Below, piece after piece: positions 32,395-42,944 of a stretch of DNA of 64,000 nt (positions are counted from its first letter, which is position 1; every line of letters begins with the position of its first letter). A model generated the notes under the pieces. The model was not told where the DNA came from. It ran no database searches and was given only the letters and a program-made list of their open reading frames with translations. The stretch comes from Clostridiales bacterium (lineage in GTDB: Bacteria; Bacillota; Clostridia; Christensenellales; Aristaeellaceae): assembly GCA_016930575.1 (NCBI GenBank), contig JAFGGL010000069.1, positions 1-64,000 on the forward strand. The letters are read 5' to 3'. The position numbers and the translations under genes were made by a program.

Positions 32395-33129
32395 TTACAA
32401 ATTGGATTGTTCGTGCGCCGCGACGAACTCTTCGCGTTCCATCCGCACGGCGTTCATCTGCCCGCAAGATTTCTCCCCCTCGGGGCATTTGCCGCGCAGG
32501 CAGCCGGGGCCTGCGTCCGCGAACAGCTCGGGTGTTACGCCGTAGCAAAGGGCAAACACCGTGTCCGCCAGCTGCCGGATCTCCCACTGGGCGCGCCTGC
32601 ACATCCGAAGCGCCAAAAAGTGCTTGAGTTCGCGCACGTTCATGGTCATCAAAAGCCTGGTTTCACAGGCGTTGGGGAGCACGAAGCGGGCGTCCTCGTT
32701 CGTGCCGAGTTTTTCCTGCCAGTCCCGGTACCAGAATAACATCTGGTCCATCTGACGGGCATATTCGTCCACGGCCTGTTTGCCCAGCGCTTCCACGGCG
32801 GGGGGCACGACGTAGCCGAAGCCCTTTTCATAACCGACATAGCGTTGGCTCTGCACGCTGAAACTGGCGATGCGGTGGCGCGTGAGCTGCGCCAGCAGCG
32901 CGCGGCTGATCCCTTCGATCAAAAAGGTGAAGGAGATGTGCTCCATCACGCTCTCGTGGCCCATCTTGAGTATCTTGCGGATAAACGCGCGCTGGTCGTT
33001 TTGCTCGATGCGGTTAAGCAGCGCGGACAGGTCTCCGCCCGCATAGCACATCTTCGCGGCCAGCGCCGTCAGCGCTTCGCCGTCCACGGTATGGCGTACA
33101 AGTTCTACCCTCTGCGTTACTTGCGGCAC
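32395..33129 (-). CDS. thyX: FAD-dependent thymidylate synthase ThyX
   Basis: A 244-residue flavoenzyme that makes dTMP from dUMP using methylene-THF and NADPH. The start is GTG 33129, after AGGAG. The ThyX signature is present as RHRIASFSVQSQRYV (residues 84-98), and FVLPNACETRLLMTMNVREL supplies the second dUMP-binding region. The C-terminus carries an uncommon cysteine-rich stretch (GPGCLRGKCPEGEKSCGQM). First gene of a run of eight closely spaced minus-strand genes. Confidence 0.94.
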   Translation of the reverse strand: MPQVTQRVELVRHTVDGEALTALAAKMCYAGGDLSALLNRIEQNDQRAFIRKILKMGHESVMEHISFTFLIEGISRALLAQLTRHRIASFSVQSQRYVGYEKGFGYVVPPAVEALGKQAVDEYARQMDQMLFWYRDWQEKLGTNEDARFVLPNACETRLLMTMNVRELKHFLALRMCRRAQWEIRQLADTVFALCYGVTPELFADAGPGCLRGKCPEGEKSCGQMNAVRMEREEFVAAHEQSNL

Positions 33130-33320: not shown

Positions 33321-33404
33321 GTGGGCATGGTGGAATGGCAGACACAAAGGACTTAAAATCCTTCGCCGCAAGGCATGCGGGTTCAAGTCCCGCTGCCCGC
33401 ACCA
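33321..33404 (+). tRNA. tRNA-Leu (anticodon TAA)
   Basis: The 84-nt sequence folds as a class II tRNA. Acceptor arm GTGGGCA pairs with TGCCCGC, anticodon stem AAGGA/TCCTT encloses loop CTTAAAA with anticodon TAA at 33354-33356, a long variable arm follows, and the T arm is GCGGGTTCAAGTCCCGC. CCA is encoded. Its 3' end opens directly into the hairpin-repeat region. Confidence 0.95.
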
Positions 33405-33461
33405 AACGTCGTCGCGGACTTCGCTAAGTTCGCGACGACGTTTCCTTTTCAAGGAAACGTC
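33404..33461 (+). terminator. Terminator-like hairpins after tRNA-Leu
   Basis: AAACGTCGTCGCG (33404-33416) pairs with CGCGACGACGTTT (33431-33443), extended inside by ACTT/AAGT, and is followed by a T-rich stretch. An overlapping second hairpin uses GACGTTTCCTT (33437-33447) with AAGGAAACGTC (33451-33461), so the two structures exclude each other. Confidence 0.7.
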
Positions 33462-33650
33462 ATCTCTCACTCCGCTCCGTCGCTCCTCCTCTCGCTTCAA
33501 GGCAGGCCTTGAAGCGGGTGGACGAGGTACGTTGTGGGGATTACGTATCACGCGCGACGACTTTTTCTTTGCGAAGAAAAAGATCATCTCTTGCTCGCTC
33601 CATCGCGGCTCCTCTCGCTTCAAAGCAGGCTTTGAAGCGGGTGGACGGGG
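33437..33650 (+). repeat. Two tandem hairpin-repeat units downstream of tRNA-Leu
   Basis: Unit 1 (about 33437-33525) and unit 2 (about 33561-33650) each hold a first hairpin, a CATCTCT/CGCTCC-type linker, CTCCTCTCG and a second hairpin, then GCGGGTGGACG. The second hairpins are CGCTTCAAGGC-AG-GCCTTGAAGCG (33493-33516) and CGCTTCAAAGC-AG-GCTTTGAAGCG (33616-33639). They differ by a compensatory G-C to A-T change, so pairing is conserved. No credible protein is encoded here. Confidence 0.75.
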
Positions 33651-33682
33651 AACGAATGAATGAAGAACGCGGAACGAAATAG

Positions 33683-33920: not shown

Positions 33921-34850
33921 ATGAATGATTGTGGACGATTTGATAAACGATACTATTTTCAACCTGATAGTGAAAAATCAGAAATTTATTCACAACTTTA
34001 TTTTAGTGAATTCAATATAAAAGAATTTAACAAGCGTAAAAGAGAATTTTTAAGTTTAAGTTTCAATAAACTTAATGATCAGGAAATAAAAAATGAGATC
34101 AAAAAGCTAATCTCTTTTAAAAATCCAATTACTAGTCAAAAGTACTTTTATGTACCAACTTGGGCTTATAGATGTAATAAAGGTACAAGAGTTTATAGAG
34201 TTAGAAAAATTGCCTTTGATCTGAAGAAATTTTATTCTCCTGATATAAAAATATTAAGGGATTTTTGGTATCCTCCAGAAAGTTATATTAAGGACTATGA
34301 AAGGCTTAACTATCCATGTGAATCATTGTTATATACAACCCAAACTCCCGAGATAGCAATAAATGAAATGAAAATCCATACAGATGAATACTTCATGCTA
34401 ATTACATATGAGTTAGAAGATGATATTGACTTGACTATAATTGGCTTAAGTCAAAGAGATTCTGATTTACTCAATATTGTAGATGTTAAGAAGAAGGTTC
34501 TAAACGATTTCTTTTTTGAAATCTTCACCAGTGATAGTACTGAAAATAATCTTTATAACGTAACCTCTAATTTATTGAAATTTTGTTTTTGTTTACCTTA
34601 TCCAAGTCAAGGTGGATGGTTTTATCCATCTATAAAATCAGAAATGGGATATAATTGTTGCTTTAAACCAGATATTGCTGATAGTAAAATGAAATTGGAT
34701 GGTGTAGAAATATGTAAATTAGATTCAAAGTATAAATATATAATACAAGCTGTTATGGCAAATATCGATGAAAATAACGCATTTACTTACCATCTTATTG
34801 GTAGTGAAACTCAAAAAAAGTTATACCCACATCTTTCCTTATGCGAGTGA
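33921..34850 (+). CDS. RES-domain-like protein (orphan, AT-rich)
   Basis: A 309-residue protein starting at ATG 33921 behind AAGGAGG. Residues 90-240 fit the RES fold of NAD+-consuming toxins such as MbcT: RVYRVRK (Arg93/Arg95), SLLYTTQTPEIAINEM with Tyr138 and Glu149, and GGWFYPSIKSEMGYN with Ser237. The N-terminal 75 residues are charged and helical, and longer than in small RES toxins. Neither an Xre-type antitoxin nor another partner is encoded beside it. Base composition is far more AT-rich than the surrounding genes, indicating recent transfer. Full catalytic competence is unproven. Confidence 0.7.
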   Translation: MNDCGRFDKRYYFQPDSEKSEIYSQLYFSEFNIKEFNKRKREFLSLSFNKLNDQEIKNEIKKLISFKNPITSQKYFYVPTWAYRCNKGTRVYRVRKIAFDLKKFYSPDIKILRDFWYPPESYIKDYERLNYPCESLLYTTQTPEIAINEMKIHTDEYFMLITYELEDDIDLTIIGLSQRDSDLLNIVDVKKKVLNDFFFEIFTSDSTENNLYNVTSNLLKFCFCLPYPSQGGWFYPSIKSEMGYNCCFKPDIADSKMKLDGVEICKLDSKYKYIIQAVMANIDENNAFTYHLIGSETQKKLYPHLSLCE

Positions 34851-35092: not shown

Positions 35093-35176
35093 CCGCACAC
35101 CGCGCAGCCGCCTTCGCCGGTTTCGCGAAGCGACGGGGGAATGGCGCTGACTTCTTTCATGACGGTGAGTGCATCA
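35093..35176 (-). pseudogene. Remnant of the 3' end of an L-serine dehydratase alpha gene
   Basis: Read on the minus strand this stretch encodes IPPSLRETGEGGCAVCG, matching the C-terminus LPPSLRETGEGGCAACGG of the intact gene at 38991-39815, with the preceding MKEV also matching MKDV. Positions 35093-35141 are nearly identical at DNA level to 38998-39046 (one mismatch in 49), while 35142-35176 is more diverged with two 3-bp gaps. Similarity stops near 35176. The remnant marks a duplication or an insertion boundary. Confidence 0.8.
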
Positions 35177-35180
35177 AATA

Positions 35181-35209
35181 TTTACAAAATAATACTTGAG
35201 TGCTATAAT
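35181..35209 (+). promoter_or_regulatory. Promoter of the large secreted protein gene
   Basis: TTTACA (35181-35186) and TATAAT (35204-35209) are exactly 17 bp apart, with a TGC extended -10. It begins 5 bp after the serine-dehydratase remnant ends and leaves a leader of about 145 nt. The gap from 34851 holds otherwise only AT-rich sequence. Confidence 0.78.
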
Positions 35210-35359
35210 CGTTACAGATTTAACAATCGGGTACCCCGGCACTTAATGCGAATGCGTTTTCAGCAGCCACCATCTGTTCCGATCACGATATCAAGGAATA
35301 GAAAAAGGAATCCGGGTCGTTTTCAATATATTGATATCCATAATTCTGGAGGTCTTAGT

Positions 35360-38300
35360 ATGAAAAGAACCTTAATGTGCGCGCTGGTTGTTATCGCGCT
35401 GTTCGCAGCATTGTGCCTGACCACCGCTGCGGCAAGCGCGGAGGCGGGAGAACAAGATCCGTTCGCGGTGCTTGATTCGGTTTCCCTGATTCCTGAGAGC
35501 CAGCTTGTGAGCAAAGATTACGAGCAAAGCGGTGATATCACGCTGGTTACGTTTGAATACCGAAATGCAACGATCCAACAGGTCGTGGCGCTGATTGAAT
35601 CGCTGTTTGAAAACCGCTGGTATTTTGTAGAAAACCAATTTCGCAAAGGCCATACCTATACGCTTGACCTTGCGTACAGCATAGAGCCGGGGAATTTGGT
35701 TCTAAACCTCACCGTGGACGGCGGAGCCGTCGAATGGCCGGAAACCATGTGGCCCTCCGTGCAGTGCGGCGTTCCCGCCTTTCCCTACGGTCAATATGCC
35801 GGGGTGGACGGGGATGCGCCGTTTATGGGCTCGGACAGCCGCTGCTTCCTTTATGATAACGTCACAGAACAGGAAATCAGACATTATCTGGAAACGCTGG
35901 ACAAGGCCGGGTTTATCCGCGATGAAGATTATGGCTGGTACTCGTGTTGGCCGTACAATGTGGATATCGGCCTGGGCGACGACGGGCAGGTCCGAATCAA
36001 CGTCGGCGAGGATATGCCGGGCCCGGAAACCTCTCCGCCCTCTTGGGACGTGCCGGTGGACACCTCTTTCCTCGTGATGCTGATCGATACGGCCGTAACG
36101 GTCCATCAGGAGGGGAATATCTGGACTGTCTCGGCCAGAAATATGTCCCTGGAGGATTTGTACTACTTCATCTACATGGCGGAATTCGATTGGTCGCCAC
36201 TGGACGACCAATACCGAATGGAACTTCCGGATCATTCCTGGCAAATACAGATTGCTGCGTTTGATTCCACCGAGCAGACTGCGGAGATCACCTTTACCTG
36301 CCCGACGCTGGAGTTTACGGATTACCGGTATGTGGTCACAAGCGGGTCCTACCTGCCGGAAAACGCGCTGTCCGGGGTAAGGGAGGAATTTGGTAGCGCG
36401 GCGCAGCTGGCGGACTGGGATGTGATCAGCGCGCTGTATGGCGACAGGTTTACTGCCTTTATGAACGCCGCGGGGATACAAACGGATGTTGACGTTTGGC
36501 TTGAGCGCGCAGGCCAGGAATACGACGGACGCCGGCATTACTTCCTGGCCCGCATCAGCGCGCAGCGCCGCAATTTCGCCCTGTACGATTTGATCGGCGA
36601 CCTTGCGTGGCTTGGCACATGGTACGGCATCGAGATGCCGGCGTTGGTGAAGCTGCCGATAAACGGTGCGGATACGAGCGATGGGAATACGGACGCTGAC
36701 AACGAAGATACGGATCCGTACGACAGCGATTACGACACCCTCGGCGATGAGGATACCGTGACGCATCCCCCGCTGCAGGTTGATGATCAATTTAAATATA
36801 CCAGAAATTTTCAGGAGACCTTCCACTATAAAGACAACTATTTCGCGGAGGATTCCACGATTTACAACGACAGCCTGTCCACGATGTCCCTGTGCCTGGC
36901 CATGTCCGCATTTGCCAAGCCGGAAAACGACACCGGCGGTTTCCAGCCGTATGCGGACCGCAGCGCGAATGTGCGGGATCTGCTGACGAAAGCGGGCTTT
37001 TCCAATATCGGAACAAACCATTGGTTCACCGTCGTGCCGACGCTGGATTCTATCGGCGTCGCGGCAGGCAGCAAACTGGTGGATTATGACGGCGAAACCT
37101 ATACGCTGATTGCCGTGGCCATTCGCGGGGGCTACTACGAGAAGGAGTGGGCCAGCAATTTCACCATGGGCGTGAACGGCGAGCACAGCGGGTTCGCCTA
37201 TGCGAAAACGCAGACGCTGGATTATATCAGGAGTTACATCACGGATAATCAGATTACCGGCAAGGTCAAGCTATGGATCGTCGGGTACAGCCGCGCCGGG
37301 GCCACCGCGAACCTTACGGCGGCGGCCATTGACAACGGCGAAGTGCTGTCGGCAGGGATAACGCTGAACCATGAAGATCTGTTCGCCTATTGCTTCGAGC
37401 CGCCTGCCGGCGGGTATAGTGAGGATGTATCGGCGCAATGGAACGCGCAGTTCCACTCGGCGCAGTACAATAATATCTTCAACATCGTGAATCCGGCCGA
37501 TCCGGTGCCAAAGCTAGCGCCAGCGGTTCTGGGATTCAGCCGGTACGGTACGGATATCACGCTGCCGTCCAAATCGTTTGATTCCCAGTACGAATCCAAG
37601 AGAATTGCAATGCTGCGCTTCTACTATTCGCTGCCAAGCATTATCGCCGGGGAAACCAGCTATTCAATCGACGATTTCCAAGTGGTATCCGTCCTGCCGG
37701 AAATTAACCTGCGCAGCTCGATTACGAGCGCCGCCGGAGGCGCGTGGGGATTTCTCTCGGGGATTGGCAGCGGCGTGATGGATGTTCTGTCCAGCGGCGC
37801 TGATGCGGCCGGCAGTCTGTGGAACTCCTATTCGGGCCCGCTGGGTGACCTATACGACGAAGCGGCCGCGGACGCTGTGACCGTCGGCAACTGGCTTTCG
37901 GACGGGGTTTCATCCATGACTGATTTTGTGAACAACTATACGGGAGGCGTGGTATACAATACGATAAACAGCATAAACGACGCGGCGTACAACGCGAAAC
38001 TGTATGCCGCCGAAACGGCCATCGACGGCGCGAACGCGGCGCTGAACAAGGCGCAGGATCTGGCGGATGCCGCTGTCGCCGACGGAAACGCGGTTATCAA
38101 CTACGTTTTTGGAAACGTTCCCGACAATACCAATCAGGACATATTCCTGGATATTCTGATTTCAAGAATTGCTCTGGAGAATGTGGAAACACGTTCCAAC
38201 TATCGTTTAACATGGCAGGATCCGCTGCGCGCGGCGGTCGAGGTCAATAGCAACTGGAACGATGATTCGATGGATTTGTTTCTGTCGATATTGAAAGAAA

Positions 38301-38974
38301 AAATGGCGCTGAAGACGCAGCAGTTCTTTCGAATCATCTATTCGGATTCGGGCAGCACCGCCGACCTGCGGAACCTGGTTACCCCTATCGTAACCGAAAG
38401 CCTGCGGGAGGCCGGGATTACCAGTTATTCCGCGGTTGAAATCGCTGTATGTACCCGCCTTATCATCGACCTGATTGCCGATGTAATCGTAGAAAACCCG
38501 CTGTTGATTCTGACCGTGTATGAAAACTCGGGCAGCCTGGAAAACGCCCACACGCAGGAGGTATGCTTCGCGTGGCTGATGTCGCGCGATCCCAATTACA
38601 CGGCGCCGAACGATCCGTCGACGGGCTCAGGGAACGCCGATTCGGGAACGACGGCGGATCTGTCGGCGGCTGTATACAACGTTTCCTTCTATACCGACAT
38701 CAACCAGGGAGGCACTTGCGTTGTTCGCTCCCCCGGGCAGTATTCGTTTACCCACCTGAATATGGGGTTCCCCAACGACTCGCTCTCCTGCATCCGCATC
38801 GGGCAGCGGCCGGACGGGCACATCAAGGTCGTGCTGTACCAGAATACCTATTACAACCTAGAGGATGAGGGCACTGTGCTGATCTTTGATCAGCCGGGCG
38901 TGTACAACCTGACGAATTATAACTTCAACGACGAGTGCTCCTCCTACGAGATCTTCCTGTTCCCCAACGACTGA
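35360..38974 (+). CDS. Large secreted protein: lipase-like alpha/beta hydrolase with C-terminal beta/gamma-crystallin-like domain
   Basis: A 1204-residue protein. ATG 35360 follows TGGAGG; the longer frame from 35141 runs through promoter sequence. A signal peptide (residues 1 to about 30) is followed by about 430 residues of unrecognised beta-rich sequence and an acidic linker (DTSDGNTDADNEDTDPYDSD). From about residue 480 a class-3-lipase-like hydrolase follows, with nucleophile elbow GYSRAG (Ser644) after KVKLWIV. A helical, Ala-rich stretch covers about 790-920. Residues about 1105-1204 (FYTDINQGG, GQYSFTHLNMGFPNDSLS) match a beta/gamma-crystallin-like module. The histidine and aspartate of a triad are not assigned. 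It stands alone between a gene remnant and sdaAA; the substrate is unknown. Confidence 0.75.
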   Translation: MKRTLMCALVVIALFAALCLTTAAASAEAGEQDPFAVLDSVSLIPESQLVSKDYEQSGDITLVTFEYRNATIQQVVALIESLFENRWYFVENQFRKGHTYTLDLAYSIEPGNLVLNLTVDGGAVEWPETMWPSVQCGVPAFPYGQYAGVDGDAPFMGSDSRCFLYDNVTEQEIRHYLETLDKAGFIRDEDYGWYSCWPYNVDIGLGDDGQVRINVGEDMPGPETSPPSWDVPVDTSFLVMLIDTAVTVHQEGNIWTVSARNMSLEDLYYFIYMAEFDWSPLDDQYRMELPDHSWQIQIAAFDSTEQTAEITFTCPTLEFTDYRYVVTSGSYLPENALSGVREEFGSAAQLADWDVISALYGDRFTAFMNAAGIQTDVDVWLERAGQEYDGRRHYFLARISAQRRNFALYDLIGDLAWLGTWYGIEMPALVKLPINGADTSDGNTDADNEDTDPYDSDYDTLGDEDTVTHPPLQVDDQFKYTRNFQETFHYKDNYFAEDSTIYNDSLSTMSLCLAMSAFAKPENDTGGFQPYADRSANVRDLLTKAGFSNIGTNHWFTVVPTLDSIGVAAGSKLVDYDGETYTLIAVAIRGGYYEKEWASNFTMGVNGEHSGFAYAKTQTLDYIRSYITDNQITGKVKLWIVGYSRAGATANLTAAAIDNGEVLSAGITLNHEDLFAYCFEPPAGGYSEDVSAQWNAQFHSAQYNNIFNIVNPADPVPKLAPAVLGFSRYGTDITLPSKSFDSQYESKRIAMLRFYYSLPSIIAGETSYSIDDFQVVSVLPEINLRSSITSAAGGAWGFLSGIGSGVMDVLSSGADAAGSLWNSYSGPLGDLYDEAAADAVTVGNWLSDGVSSMTDFVNNYTGGVVYNTINSINDAAYNAKLYAAETAIDGANAALNKAQDLADAAVADGNAVINYVFGNVPDNTNQDIFLDILISRIALENVETRSNYRLTWQDPLRAAVEVNSNWNDDSMDLFLSILKEKMALKTQQFFRIIYSDSGSTADLRNLVTPIVTESLREAGITSYSAVEIAVCTRLIIDLIADVIVENPLLILTVYENSGSLENAHTQEVCFAWLMSRDPNYTAPNDPSTGSGNADSGTTADLSAAVYNVSFYTDINQGGTCVVRSPGQYSFTHLNMGFPNDSLSCIRIGQRPDGHIKVVLYQNTYYNLEDEGTVLIFDQPGVYNLTNYNFNDECSSYEIFLFPND

Positions 38975-38990
38975 TTCAGACTTTGCTTAT

Positions 38991-39815
38991 TCAGCCGCCG
39001 CACGCCGCGCAGCCGCCTTCGCCGGTTTCGCGAAGCGACGGGGGAAGGGCGGTGCCTACGTCCTTCATGGCGGCGATGAGGCAATCGACGTCCAGCGGGC
39101 AGGTAAGACCGGCCAGGGCCATCTGTGCGGCGCACAGGGCCTGGGCGGCGCCGGCGGCGTTGCGGTACACGCAGGGGATCTCCACAAGGCCGTCCACGGG
39201 ATCGCACACCAGCCCCATAGAGTTCATCAGCACGAAGCCGCAGGCGCCTATCGCCTGTTCGTCCGTACCGTTCATCAAATGTACATACGCCGCTGCGGCC
39301 ATCGCCGCGGCGCTGCCGCATTCGGCCTGGCAGCCGCCTTCCGCGCCGCTGACGGTGGCCTGCAGCGCGATGACTCGCCCGACGGCCGCCGCCAGAAACA
39401 TGGCGTCTACAAGGGCGTCGTCGGGCAGTCCGAGGCTTTCCTGCGCGGCGATGAGCACGCCGGGCAGTATGCCGCAGCTTCCCGCCGTCGGCGCGGCGAC
39501 AATCTTGCCCATGCAGGCGTTGTTTTCGGCGATCGCCAGCGCGTAGGCGCCTGCCTTGGCGGTGATGCCGTACAGTTCCGTATCGGCGGCGGTAAACAAC
39601 TTCGCCGCGTTGCCGCCCACCCGGCCGGAAACCGAGCGCAGATCGGGATTTAATCCTTCTTTCAGGCTTTCTTTCATCACGATGAGCCTGCCGCGCATGG
39701 TTTGCGTTACGGAAGCTTCACTCGCCTGTGCTTCCTTTGCCTGCCACGCGGCGGCCGCCTTGCTGATCGAGCCGTATCGTTTTCCCGCTTCCAAAAGCGC
39801 ATGGATCGTATCCAT
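38991..39815 (-). CDS. sdaAA: L-serine dehydratase, iron-sulfur type, alpha subunit
   Basis: A 274-residue catalytic subunit that converts L-serine to pyruvate and ammonia with a [4Fe-4S] cluster. Conserved segments are VAAPTAGSCGILPG, GGCQAECGSAAAMAAAAYV and SMGLVCDPVDGLVEIPC, which supply the cluster cysteines; the C-terminus ends CAACGG. It is 4 bp downstream of the beta subunit gene. The last 49 bp of the gene are nearly duplicated at 35093-35141. The adjacent convergent gene ends only 16 bp away. Confidence 0.94.
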   Translation of the reverse strand: MDTIHALLEAGKRYGSISKAAAAWQAKEAQASEASVTQTMRGRLIVMKESLKEGLNPDLRSVSGRVGGNAAKLFTAADTELYGITAKAGAYALAIAENNACMGKIVAAPTAGSCGILPGVLIAAQESLGLPDDALVDAMFLAAAVGRVIALQATVSGAEGGCQAECGSAAAMAAAAYVHLMNGTDEQAIGACGFVLMNSMGLVCDPVDGLVEIPCVYRNAAGAAQALCAAQMALAGLTCPLDVDCLIAAMKDVGTALPPSLRETGEGGCAACGG

Positions 39816-39819
39816 ATCG

Positions 39820-40500
39820 TTATCCCTCTTGACGGTCGTTGGTGAATTTCAGATAGGCCACGCTGTAGACGTTCTCCAGGGCGGACAGCTTCTCCGTCAG
39901 CCCGGCGTCCGCCTCGCCGTCGATTTCCAGCGCCACCATGGCGCCGCCGCCCAGCACCGTGCGGGAAACGAGCATCGCCGCGATATTGATCCGCGCGGCG
40001 GCGATCTCATGCGTGATATTTGCGATCATGCCATATTTGTCCAGATAATGAATCACCAGGGTATTGGCGTGTCCGGTGATCTTCGTTTCGTGCCCGTCGA
40101 TTTCCTGGATGCGGATCTCCCCGCCGCCGACGGAGGCCGCACGCAGGTTCACGCTGCGCCCCGCATCGTCGCTCAGGTCGATGACGACGGTGTTTGGATG
40201 GGCGTTTCTTACCGTTGCGCTGTAGAAATCAACTTGAAAACCCGCTTCGCCGGCCAATTCCCGGCTGTCGCGCAGGCGCGGATCGTCGATGTCCATATTC
40301 AACATCCCGCCGATCAGCGCCTTGTCCGTGCCGTGGCCTTGATAGGTCTTTTGAAACGAGCCGCACAGCCCGACGCTTGCTTTTTTGGGCGCGCCGCTCA
40401 GCAGCATGCGCGCGGCCTTTCCGATGCGCGCCGCGCCAGCCGTGTGGGACGAACTCGGGCCGATCATCACCGGGCCGACGATATCAAACAAATCAGGCAT
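39820..40500 (-). CDS. sdaAB: L-serine dehydratase, iron-sulfur type, beta subunit
   Basis: A 226-residue subunit starting at ATG 40500 after GGGAGG; the frame from 40542 begins inside the promoter region. The N-terminus MPDLFDIVGPVMIGPSSSHT is diagnostic. The C-terminal 70 residues form an ACT domain (TLVIHYLDKYGMIANITHEI), the site of serine regulation in this family. It forms the two-component enzyme with the gene at 38991. Confidence 0.94.
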   Translation of the reverse strand: MPDLFDIVGPVMIGPSSSHTAGAARIGKAARMLLSGAPKKASVGLCGSFQKTYQGHGTDKALIGGMLNMDIDDPRLRDSRELAGEAGFQVDFYSATVRNAHPNTVVIDLSDDAGRSVNLRAASVGGGEIRIQEIDGHETKITGHANTLVIHYLDKYGMIANITHEIAAARINIAAMLVSRTVLGGGAMVALEIDGEADAGLTEKLSALENVYSVAYLKFTNDRQEG

Positions 40501-40530
40501 ACAAAACCTCCCCGCCGTGCCGATATTCGC

Positions 40531-40559
40531 AATATATACCAAAGCGGACGGGGTTTCAA
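40531..40559 (-). promoter_or_regulatory. Promoter of sdaAB-sdaAA
   Basis: Minus-strand TTGAAA (40554-40559) and TATATT (40531-40536) have a 17-bp spacer, about 30 bp before the start codon. Confidence 0.75.
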
Positions 40560-41314: not shown

Positions 41315-42739
41315 CTATACGGATCCGAAATCAGAGCTTTCATCTATTGATGTTAACGTATCGCCCTCAATAACGCATGCGTTCTTTGTTTCCGTGTTAC
41401 TACGCAATGTAATCGGATTGACGAATGTGCAATCAATAAACTGAAGTTCCTTAAGATTGCTTTCGACGATTCTTCCGTTCTTGAACTTGCACTTATAGAA
41501 TACCGTTCCCTTCAACGATTTTCCGGCAAAGCGAAAATCGTCTATGATACATTTTTCGAATTGGATGGTAGCGGTGCATTGAATCAGATGCAGTTTCTGG
41601 AATGTGCATGCGGTGAATTTTACGTCGCTGAGCGTGGTGCTGTATATGATACAATTCTCAAAATGCTCATGATAGAACTCCGTCATGTACAGTAAACTTT
41701 GCACGACAGAGTACTTGCCTTTGTAGCGGTTGAATACAAAGGAAGCTCCTTTCATGCTGCATTCGCGGAACGTAACCTGGTTGAAAGTGTTGCGGTAGAA
41801 TCTCGCATTGTCTAGCTTCGTATTAAAAATCCTCACAGAAACAAAAAGACAACTGCGGAATTTTGCTTCGGTAAAGTTATCATTGACAATATAGCAGTTT
41901 TTATATGTCATCAGCGTGGCTTTAAACTGATTGCTGACACAATCCCTAAGTACACATTCTTCTAGCGTAGTCAGGCGCAGAGCCTTATGATAGAAATCGA
42001 CATGGTACAGAATTTGCGATGCATATCCGATAAACGGACCGATGTGCAATTCGCACATCGCTTCTCCAAACAGGGAAGAGGCTAATGACAGAAGCCTGGA
42101 GATGTTCTGAATATCGTAGGATGTTTTTTTGTCGCCGAATGTTTCCAATAGGGAGGCGTCGAGTTTTGTTTCCGGCGGTTTTTTCAACACCAGATCGACT
42201 TCCTTGTTTGATAATTGTATACCACTGGCTGCTTTTTGTGCTTTTTTAGGCATCTCAAGGTAGATTTTCCAGATCAACCTGTTGATCATTTCCAGGAAAT
42301 TATGTGCTTTTTTACTATGCTGCAGCAGCGCTTGCCGTAGCCGTGTACGAATCACGATGTCCATTTCCAAGGCGCATAGATAAAAAACCTGTTCGTAGGA
42401 TTCTTCACAGTATTTTGTTACGGTTTGCAGCGCACTGAGCTTTAAGATGATGATGCTGTTGGTATCCGTTTCCTCTGCAACGGATTGTTCCGTTGTCGCT
42501 TTGATTTCAGAGAATTGCTTAATCGCTGCCGCATACACTTTTTCGCGATGATCTCGTACATATGCGCGCAGTTTATTGAAGGCTTCCAATCCCACCCAGA
42601 CCGCCGCGACGATTGCAAGGACTGTGGAAATTATGGAAAGCAGCGTATCAATTGAATCTTTATTTACAGTCAGGAACGGTAAAAAGGTTGCTTTGGAATC
42701 ATTGGTTACAGACGAAAGATTTAAAAGGATTTCTACCAT
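41315..42739 (-). CDS. Membrane protein with pentapeptide-repeat-like C-terminal region
   Basis: A 474-residue protein. ATG 42739 is preferred (AAGGCAGG about 10 bp upstream) over ATG 42769. A single span (about residues 30-50, LLSIISTVLAIVAAVWVGLEA) is followed by a helical cytoplasmic part to about 270. The last 190 residues have tandem strands resembling pentapeptide repeats (NFTEAKFRSCLF, DNARFYRNTFNQVTFRECSM, LKGTVFYKCKFKNGRI), which would form a right-handed beta-helix. It is more AT-rich than its neighbours and is transcribed alone. The function is unknown; no toxin, nuclease or protease motif is seen. Confidence 0.7.
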   Translation of the reverse strand: MVEILLNLSSVTNDSKATFLPFLTVNKDSIDTLLSIISTVLAIVAAVWVGLEAFNKLRAYVRDHREKVYAAAIKQFSEIKATTEQSVAEETDTNSIIILKLSALQTVTKYCEESYEQVFYLCALEMDIVIRTRLRQALLQHSKKAHNFLEMINRLIWKIYLEMPKKAQKAASGIQLSNKEVDLVLKKPPETKLDASLLETFGDKKTSYDIQNISRLLSLASSLFGEAMCELHIGPFIGYASQILYHVDFYHKALRLTTLEECVLRDCVSNQFKATLMTYKNCYIVNDNFTEAKFRSCLFVSVRIFNTKLDNARFYRNTFNQVTFRECSMKGASFVFNRYKGKYSVVQSLLYMTEFYHEHFENCIIYSTTLSDVKFTACTFQKLHLIQCTATIQFEKCIIDDFRFAGKSLKGTVFYKCKFKNGRIVESNLKELQFIDCTFVNPITLRSNTETKNACVIEGDTLTSIDESSDFGSV

Positions 42740-42944
42740 TAATTTTACACCTGCCTTATACAGACGCATAACGAATCTGAACGGGGGAGTATAAGAATTG
42801 TTGGGCGGTATGGTGATTGAGCAGACTTGTCGGGATTTAGTTGTTTAAATTTGTTTCAATCATAACATATGCTTGCAGTGACAGCAAGCAATAATTAGTT
42901 CGTTAAGTCTGTATGGTTTTCAATGTTGTTTGGATCGCGGACAA

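What the first reader, a model, noticed from the sequence alone, without database searches (positions are those of the whole stretch)
35093..39046. Serine-dehydratase tail duplicated at both sides of a 3.9-kb cargo gene
The segment 35093-35141 is almost identical to 38998-39046, the 3' end of sdaAA, while coding sequence just inside the left copy is diverged yet still homologous (MKEV...IPPSLRETGEGGCAVCG). The cargo between them is one large secreted-protein gene with its promoter starting 5 bp after the remnant. This is how a site-specific element inserted at a gene 3' end would look, though no integrase is present.
Basis: partly seen in the sequence, partly recalled or inferred. Interest (0 to 1): 0.65.

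Follow-up and report, generated by a model that had tools for sequence, protein, structure and literature searches.

The report
Duplicated gene-tail scar beside secreted lipase
In an uncultured Clostridia genome, a short piece of the end of a serine-breakdown gene sits on the far side of a neighbouring secreted-lipase gene, most likely the scar of a past DNA insertion or rearrangement; this is a common kind of genome accident and nothing shows it to be a working mobile element.

Summary
35093-35141 matches the 3' end of sdaAA (38998-39046) at 48 of 49 bases, with an exact 42-base run. It is the only source of exact direct repeats of 24 bases or more in the 64-kb window. Coding-type homology continues inward for about 35 bases (MKEVSAIPPSLRETGEGGCAVCG against MKDVGTALPPSLRETGEGGCAACG), with a sharp drop in identity (48/49, then 24/34). 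In a search of 300 family genomes only the own genome showed a second copy of the tail. The gene between the copies encodes a secreted protein with a class-3 lipase domain and a C-terminal beta/gamma-crystallin domain. Apart from that C-terminal domain in two species, it has no match in the other species of the genus.

The mosaic of diverged arm and identical core is what one crossover in a shared gene tail would leave. But there is no integrase in the window, no further core copy in the genome, no match in viral contigs, and no comparable occupied site in relatives. RecA-type integration of DNA carrying a diverged sdaAA tail, or decay of a second sdaAA copy, explains it as well. A short-read assembly error cannot be excluded. 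Ordinary recombination scar; low interest.

The parts
35093..35141 (-). left copy of the sdaAA 3' end, 48/49 identical to the right copy; exact 42-base core at 35100-35141
35142..35176 (-). diverged continuation of the sdaAA remnant (D-A-L-T-V-M-K-E-V-S-A-I); boundary at about 35176 inferred from alignment
   Evidence: inference for the exact end
35181..35209 (+). promoter-like site TTTACA-17-TATAAT for the lipase gene
   Evidence: consensus match only
35360..38974 (+). secreted protein of 1204 aa, Lipase_3 domain in the middle, beta/gamma-crystallin-like C-terminal domain
38991..39815 (-). sdaAA, L-serine dehydratase alpha chain; its 3' end (38998-39046) is the right copy of the repeat
39820..40542 (-). 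sdaAB, L-serine dehydratase beta chain

Best explanation
The repeat is a recombination scar from insertion of the lipase-bearing segment downstream of sdaAA by one crossover inside a shared sdaAA tail (Campbell type). The incoming DNA carried the lipase gene and a truncated, diverged sdaAA 3' end. The crossover fell in the 42-base identical core. It left the resident gene whole but with a replaced, slightly shortened end, and left a hybrid stump on the far side: a foreign diverged arm on the cargo side and the displaced original end outside. Shown: the repeat, its mosaic structure, its uniqueness among the genomes searched, the lineage-specific cargo. Inferred: direction of the event, circular form of the incoming DNA, and its driver, which I think was more likely general recombination than an integrase.
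For: Sharp change from 48/49 to 24/34 identity at the core edge (Fisher p=0.0004). The core is far closer to the resident gene than to any relative's gene compared (30-42 of 49). The resident gene is genus-like up to the core (MKD...AACGG; G005 has AACGG too) but then stops 4 or more codons earlier than the genus relatives. Apart from a C-terminal-domain match in two species, the lipase gene has no match in the five other species of the genus. Synteny with the genus stops at thyX, and sdaAB-sdaAA has other neighbours in the relatives, so the locus is plastic. No second tail was seen in other family genomes.
Against: No empty site from a close strain was available. The likeness of the displaced end (CGRIG*) to genus ends (CGRG*) is too short to carry weight. 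The diverged arm is only about 35 bases. Later gene conversion of an older stump would give the same pattern.
Confidence: 0.45

Rival explanations
1. The left copy is the last stump of a second sdaAA gene (tandem or acquired copy, or left by a rearrangement), nearly all deleted. Its final 49 bases were kept alike by gene conversion from the resident gene. The lipase gene lay between the two copies or came separately.
For: The diverged arm is coding-like (MKEVSA-I against the family's MKEVGDAL), as expected of an independent sdaAA copy. The sdaAB-sdaAA neighbourhood is not conserved, so rearrangement is evident.
Against: No sign of sdaAA upstream of about 35176. Other genomes gave at most one match to the tail in the family-wide DNA search and one sdaAA hit each among 40 relatives. 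Needs near-complete deletion plus conversion.
Confidence: 0.3
2. Degraded site-specific integrative element that used the sdaAA 3' end as attB, with attL and attR as the two 49-base copies and the recombinase lost or acting in trans.
For: 3' end of a conserved gene, gene frame restored, direct repeat with exact core, lineage-specific cargo.
Against: No recombinase, mobilisation or replication gene between the copies. No further core copy in the genome, no viral-contig match, no relative with an occupied site. No paired-arm symmetry in the core beyond an 8-base palindrome.
Confidence: 0.13
3. Assembly artefact: the 42-base exact repeat, together with the multicopy repeat at 33404-33660, let a short-read metagenome assembler join segments that are not neighbours.
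For: G000 is a fragmented assembly (78 contigs) whose closest named relatives are metagenome-assembled genomes. The 33404-33660 repeat is dispersed in the genome and also lies near contig ends. GC drops to 27% at 33.7-34.8 kb.
Against: Both copies sit inside one contig with distinct flanks on each side. A collapsed repeat would usually be identical, not 48/49 with a diverged arm.
Confidence: 0.1

Closest known systems
Integrative elements at gene 3' ends (for example prophage e14 in E. coli icd; from general knowledge)
   Same: Direct repeat of a gene's 3' end on both sides of inserted DNA, with the intact gene kept in frame
   Different: No integrase or other element gene; cargo is one gene; the core sits beside a partly diverged arm on the cargo side; no occupied sites in relatives
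Homology-facilitated illegitimate recombination with displaced gene ends (PMC3240628; PMC5361080)
   Same: A short homologous anchor guides entry of foreign DNA and a partial gene is left downstream of the new genes
   Different: Here a similar tail is present at both ends, which a single-crossover (Campbell) event explains more directly; the event itself was not observed

Membership tests
Site-specific integrative element at a gene 3' end | Direct repeats of the gene's 3' end at both boundaries | tested here: met
   48/49 identity, exact 42-base core
Site-specific integrative element at a gene 3' end | Integrase gene within the element | tested here: not met
   Only the lipase gene lies between the copies; the genome's Phage_integrase matches are on other contigs. 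Serine recombinases were not searched for by model elsewhere in the genome.
Site-specific integrative element at a gene 3' end | Same site used by other elements or empty in close strains | tested here: inconclusive
   No second copy in relatives, but no strain of the same species was available
Site-specific integrative element at a gene 3' end | Excision to a circle | not testable with these tools
   Needs reads or PCR
Homology-facilitated illegitimate recombination | Homologous anchor at one end, non-homologous join at the other | tested here: inconclusive
   Anchor-like 42-base block present; donor unknown, so the other join cannot be placed

The most novel reading that the evidence does not exclude
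A minimal mobile cassette of 3.9 kb, carrying one secreted lipase gene, that inserts at the 3' end of sdaAA using a recombinase supplied in trans.
Probability: 0.04. Interest if true: 0.6.

Novelty: new member of a known kind. Interest (0 to 1): 0.2.

Why it matters
If the insertion reading holds, it is one more example of a genome gaining an accessory secreted enzyme through recombination at the end of a housekeeping gene. It would not change understanding of mobile elements unless a recombinase acting in trans were shown.

Tried and rejected
Core in viral contigs, exact and degenerate patterns: nothing. Lipase protein in viral contigs and plasmids, RES-like protein in viral contigs and phages: no relatives. 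Tail repeats beside sdaAA in 92 related loci: only weak short matches of 15-38 bases. Long direct repeats around lipase-domain homologues in eight loci: only short-range repeats in three of them. Special folding of the core: none, z 0.21. An e14-like crossover at the 5' edge of the homology, with the remnant as the original end: disfavoured, because the resident tail is the genus-like one. Paper searches for sdaAA or serine dehydratase as an integration site gave nothing usable.

Full report
Observation. The direct repeat is real. 35093-35141 and 38998-39046 agree at 48 of 49 bases, with an exact run of 42 bases. No other pair of 24-base words repeats on the same strand anywhere in the 64-kb window. 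The right copy is the 3' end of sdaAA (38991-39815, minus strand), which follows sdaAB (39820-40542). The left copy reads MKEVSAIPPSLRETGEGGCAVCGRIG* on the minus strand against the resident MKDVGTALPPSLRETGEGGCAACGG*. The homology can be traced to about 35176, with one codon missing at V-S-A and probably another further in.

Mosaic structure. The core is 48/49 identical, while the next 34 aligned bases on the cargo side are 24/34 (Fisher p=0.0004; from the ATG alone 14/19, p=0.005). The arm is unlikely to be chance: 62 of 20,000 random 44-mers from the window score as well, and it is in frame and collinear. In the 33 related loci compared, the best match to the core is 30-42 of 49, so the core of the left copy comes from this lineage's own sdaAA or was exchanged with it.

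Context. In genus relatives sdaAB-sdaAA stand next to each other but in other surroundings. Synteny left of the site runs from about 25.8 kb to thyX (32395-33129) in the relative with the longest contig (G003), from 26.8 kb in G001, and stops at thyX in both. The 5-formyltetrahydrofolate cyclo-ligase gene to the right gave no hit in the genus. The RES-like gene at 33921-34850 (my reading by eye; no Pfam or NCBIfam match) is 28% GC and absent from the genus. This is a plastic stretch beside a tRNA-Leu gene.

The gene between the copies. 35360-38974 encodes 1204 residues with a hydrophobic N-terminus typical of a signal peptide, a Lipase_3 match at residues 602-722 (E=7.7e-6), and a C-terminal domain related to clostrillin and other beta/gamma crystallins. 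Within the genus only the C-terminal domain has a match, in G003 and G004. The central domain is found in a minority of genomes: 18 of 396 in the order, own genome included, have some match to the protein. The gene's GC (55.5%, GC3 0.70) is a little below its neighbours.

How unusual. A search of 300 family genomes with the remnant found two matches in the own genome and one match, never two, in each of the 47 other genomes that matched; those I could place are the sdaAA gene itself. Ninety-two loci around sdaAA in relatives showed no second tail beyond weak chance-level matches. The scar is thus specific to this lineage as far as these genomes show.

Mechanism. A single crossover within the shared core between the resident sdaAA and incoming DNA bearing a diverged sdaAA tail predicts what is seen. 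The resident gene is genus-like up to the core and altered after it: it stops right after AACGG, whereas the four genus sequences compared run on for 4 or more codons. The stump is foreign-like on the cargo side and carries a different end outside. An integrase or RecA could make that crossover. I found no support for an integrase: none between the copies, no third copy of the core in the genome, no viral contig with it, and the genome's tyrosine-recombinase matches all on other contigs. The rival, a nearly deleted second sdaAA with gene conversion of its end, cannot be excluded without strains. An assembly error is possible in a 78-contig assembly with a dispersed repeat 1.5 kb away.

Comparison. 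It resembles attachment-site duplications at gene 3' ends, and also the displaced gene ends attributed to homology-facilitated illegitimate recombination (PMC3240628, PMC5361080). It fails the integrase criterion of the first. Verdict: a genuine but ordinary recombination scar.

Noticed in passing
33404-33660: Dispersed multicopy repeat family (hairpin-rich) right after tRNA-Leu: 26 matches in the genome counting both strands and sub-matches, several near contig ends, including the end of this contig at 64695.
   Followed up: partly
33921-34850: Very AT-rich (28% GC) gene, RES-domain-like by eye but without any Pfam, NCBIfam, PADLOC or PHROG match; absent from the genus; one weak match outside its own genome among 398 genomes drawn from its phylum. 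Inverted words AAGAACAAAAGAA and GGCGCGGGAA lie on both sides.
   Followed up: partly
41315-42769: Pentapeptide-repeat protein in a 42% GC stretch, another likely foreign gene right of sdaAB.
   Followed up: no
38974-38991: Stop codons of the lipase gene and sdaAA face each other with only 16 bases between them and no terminator-like site there.
   Followed up: no
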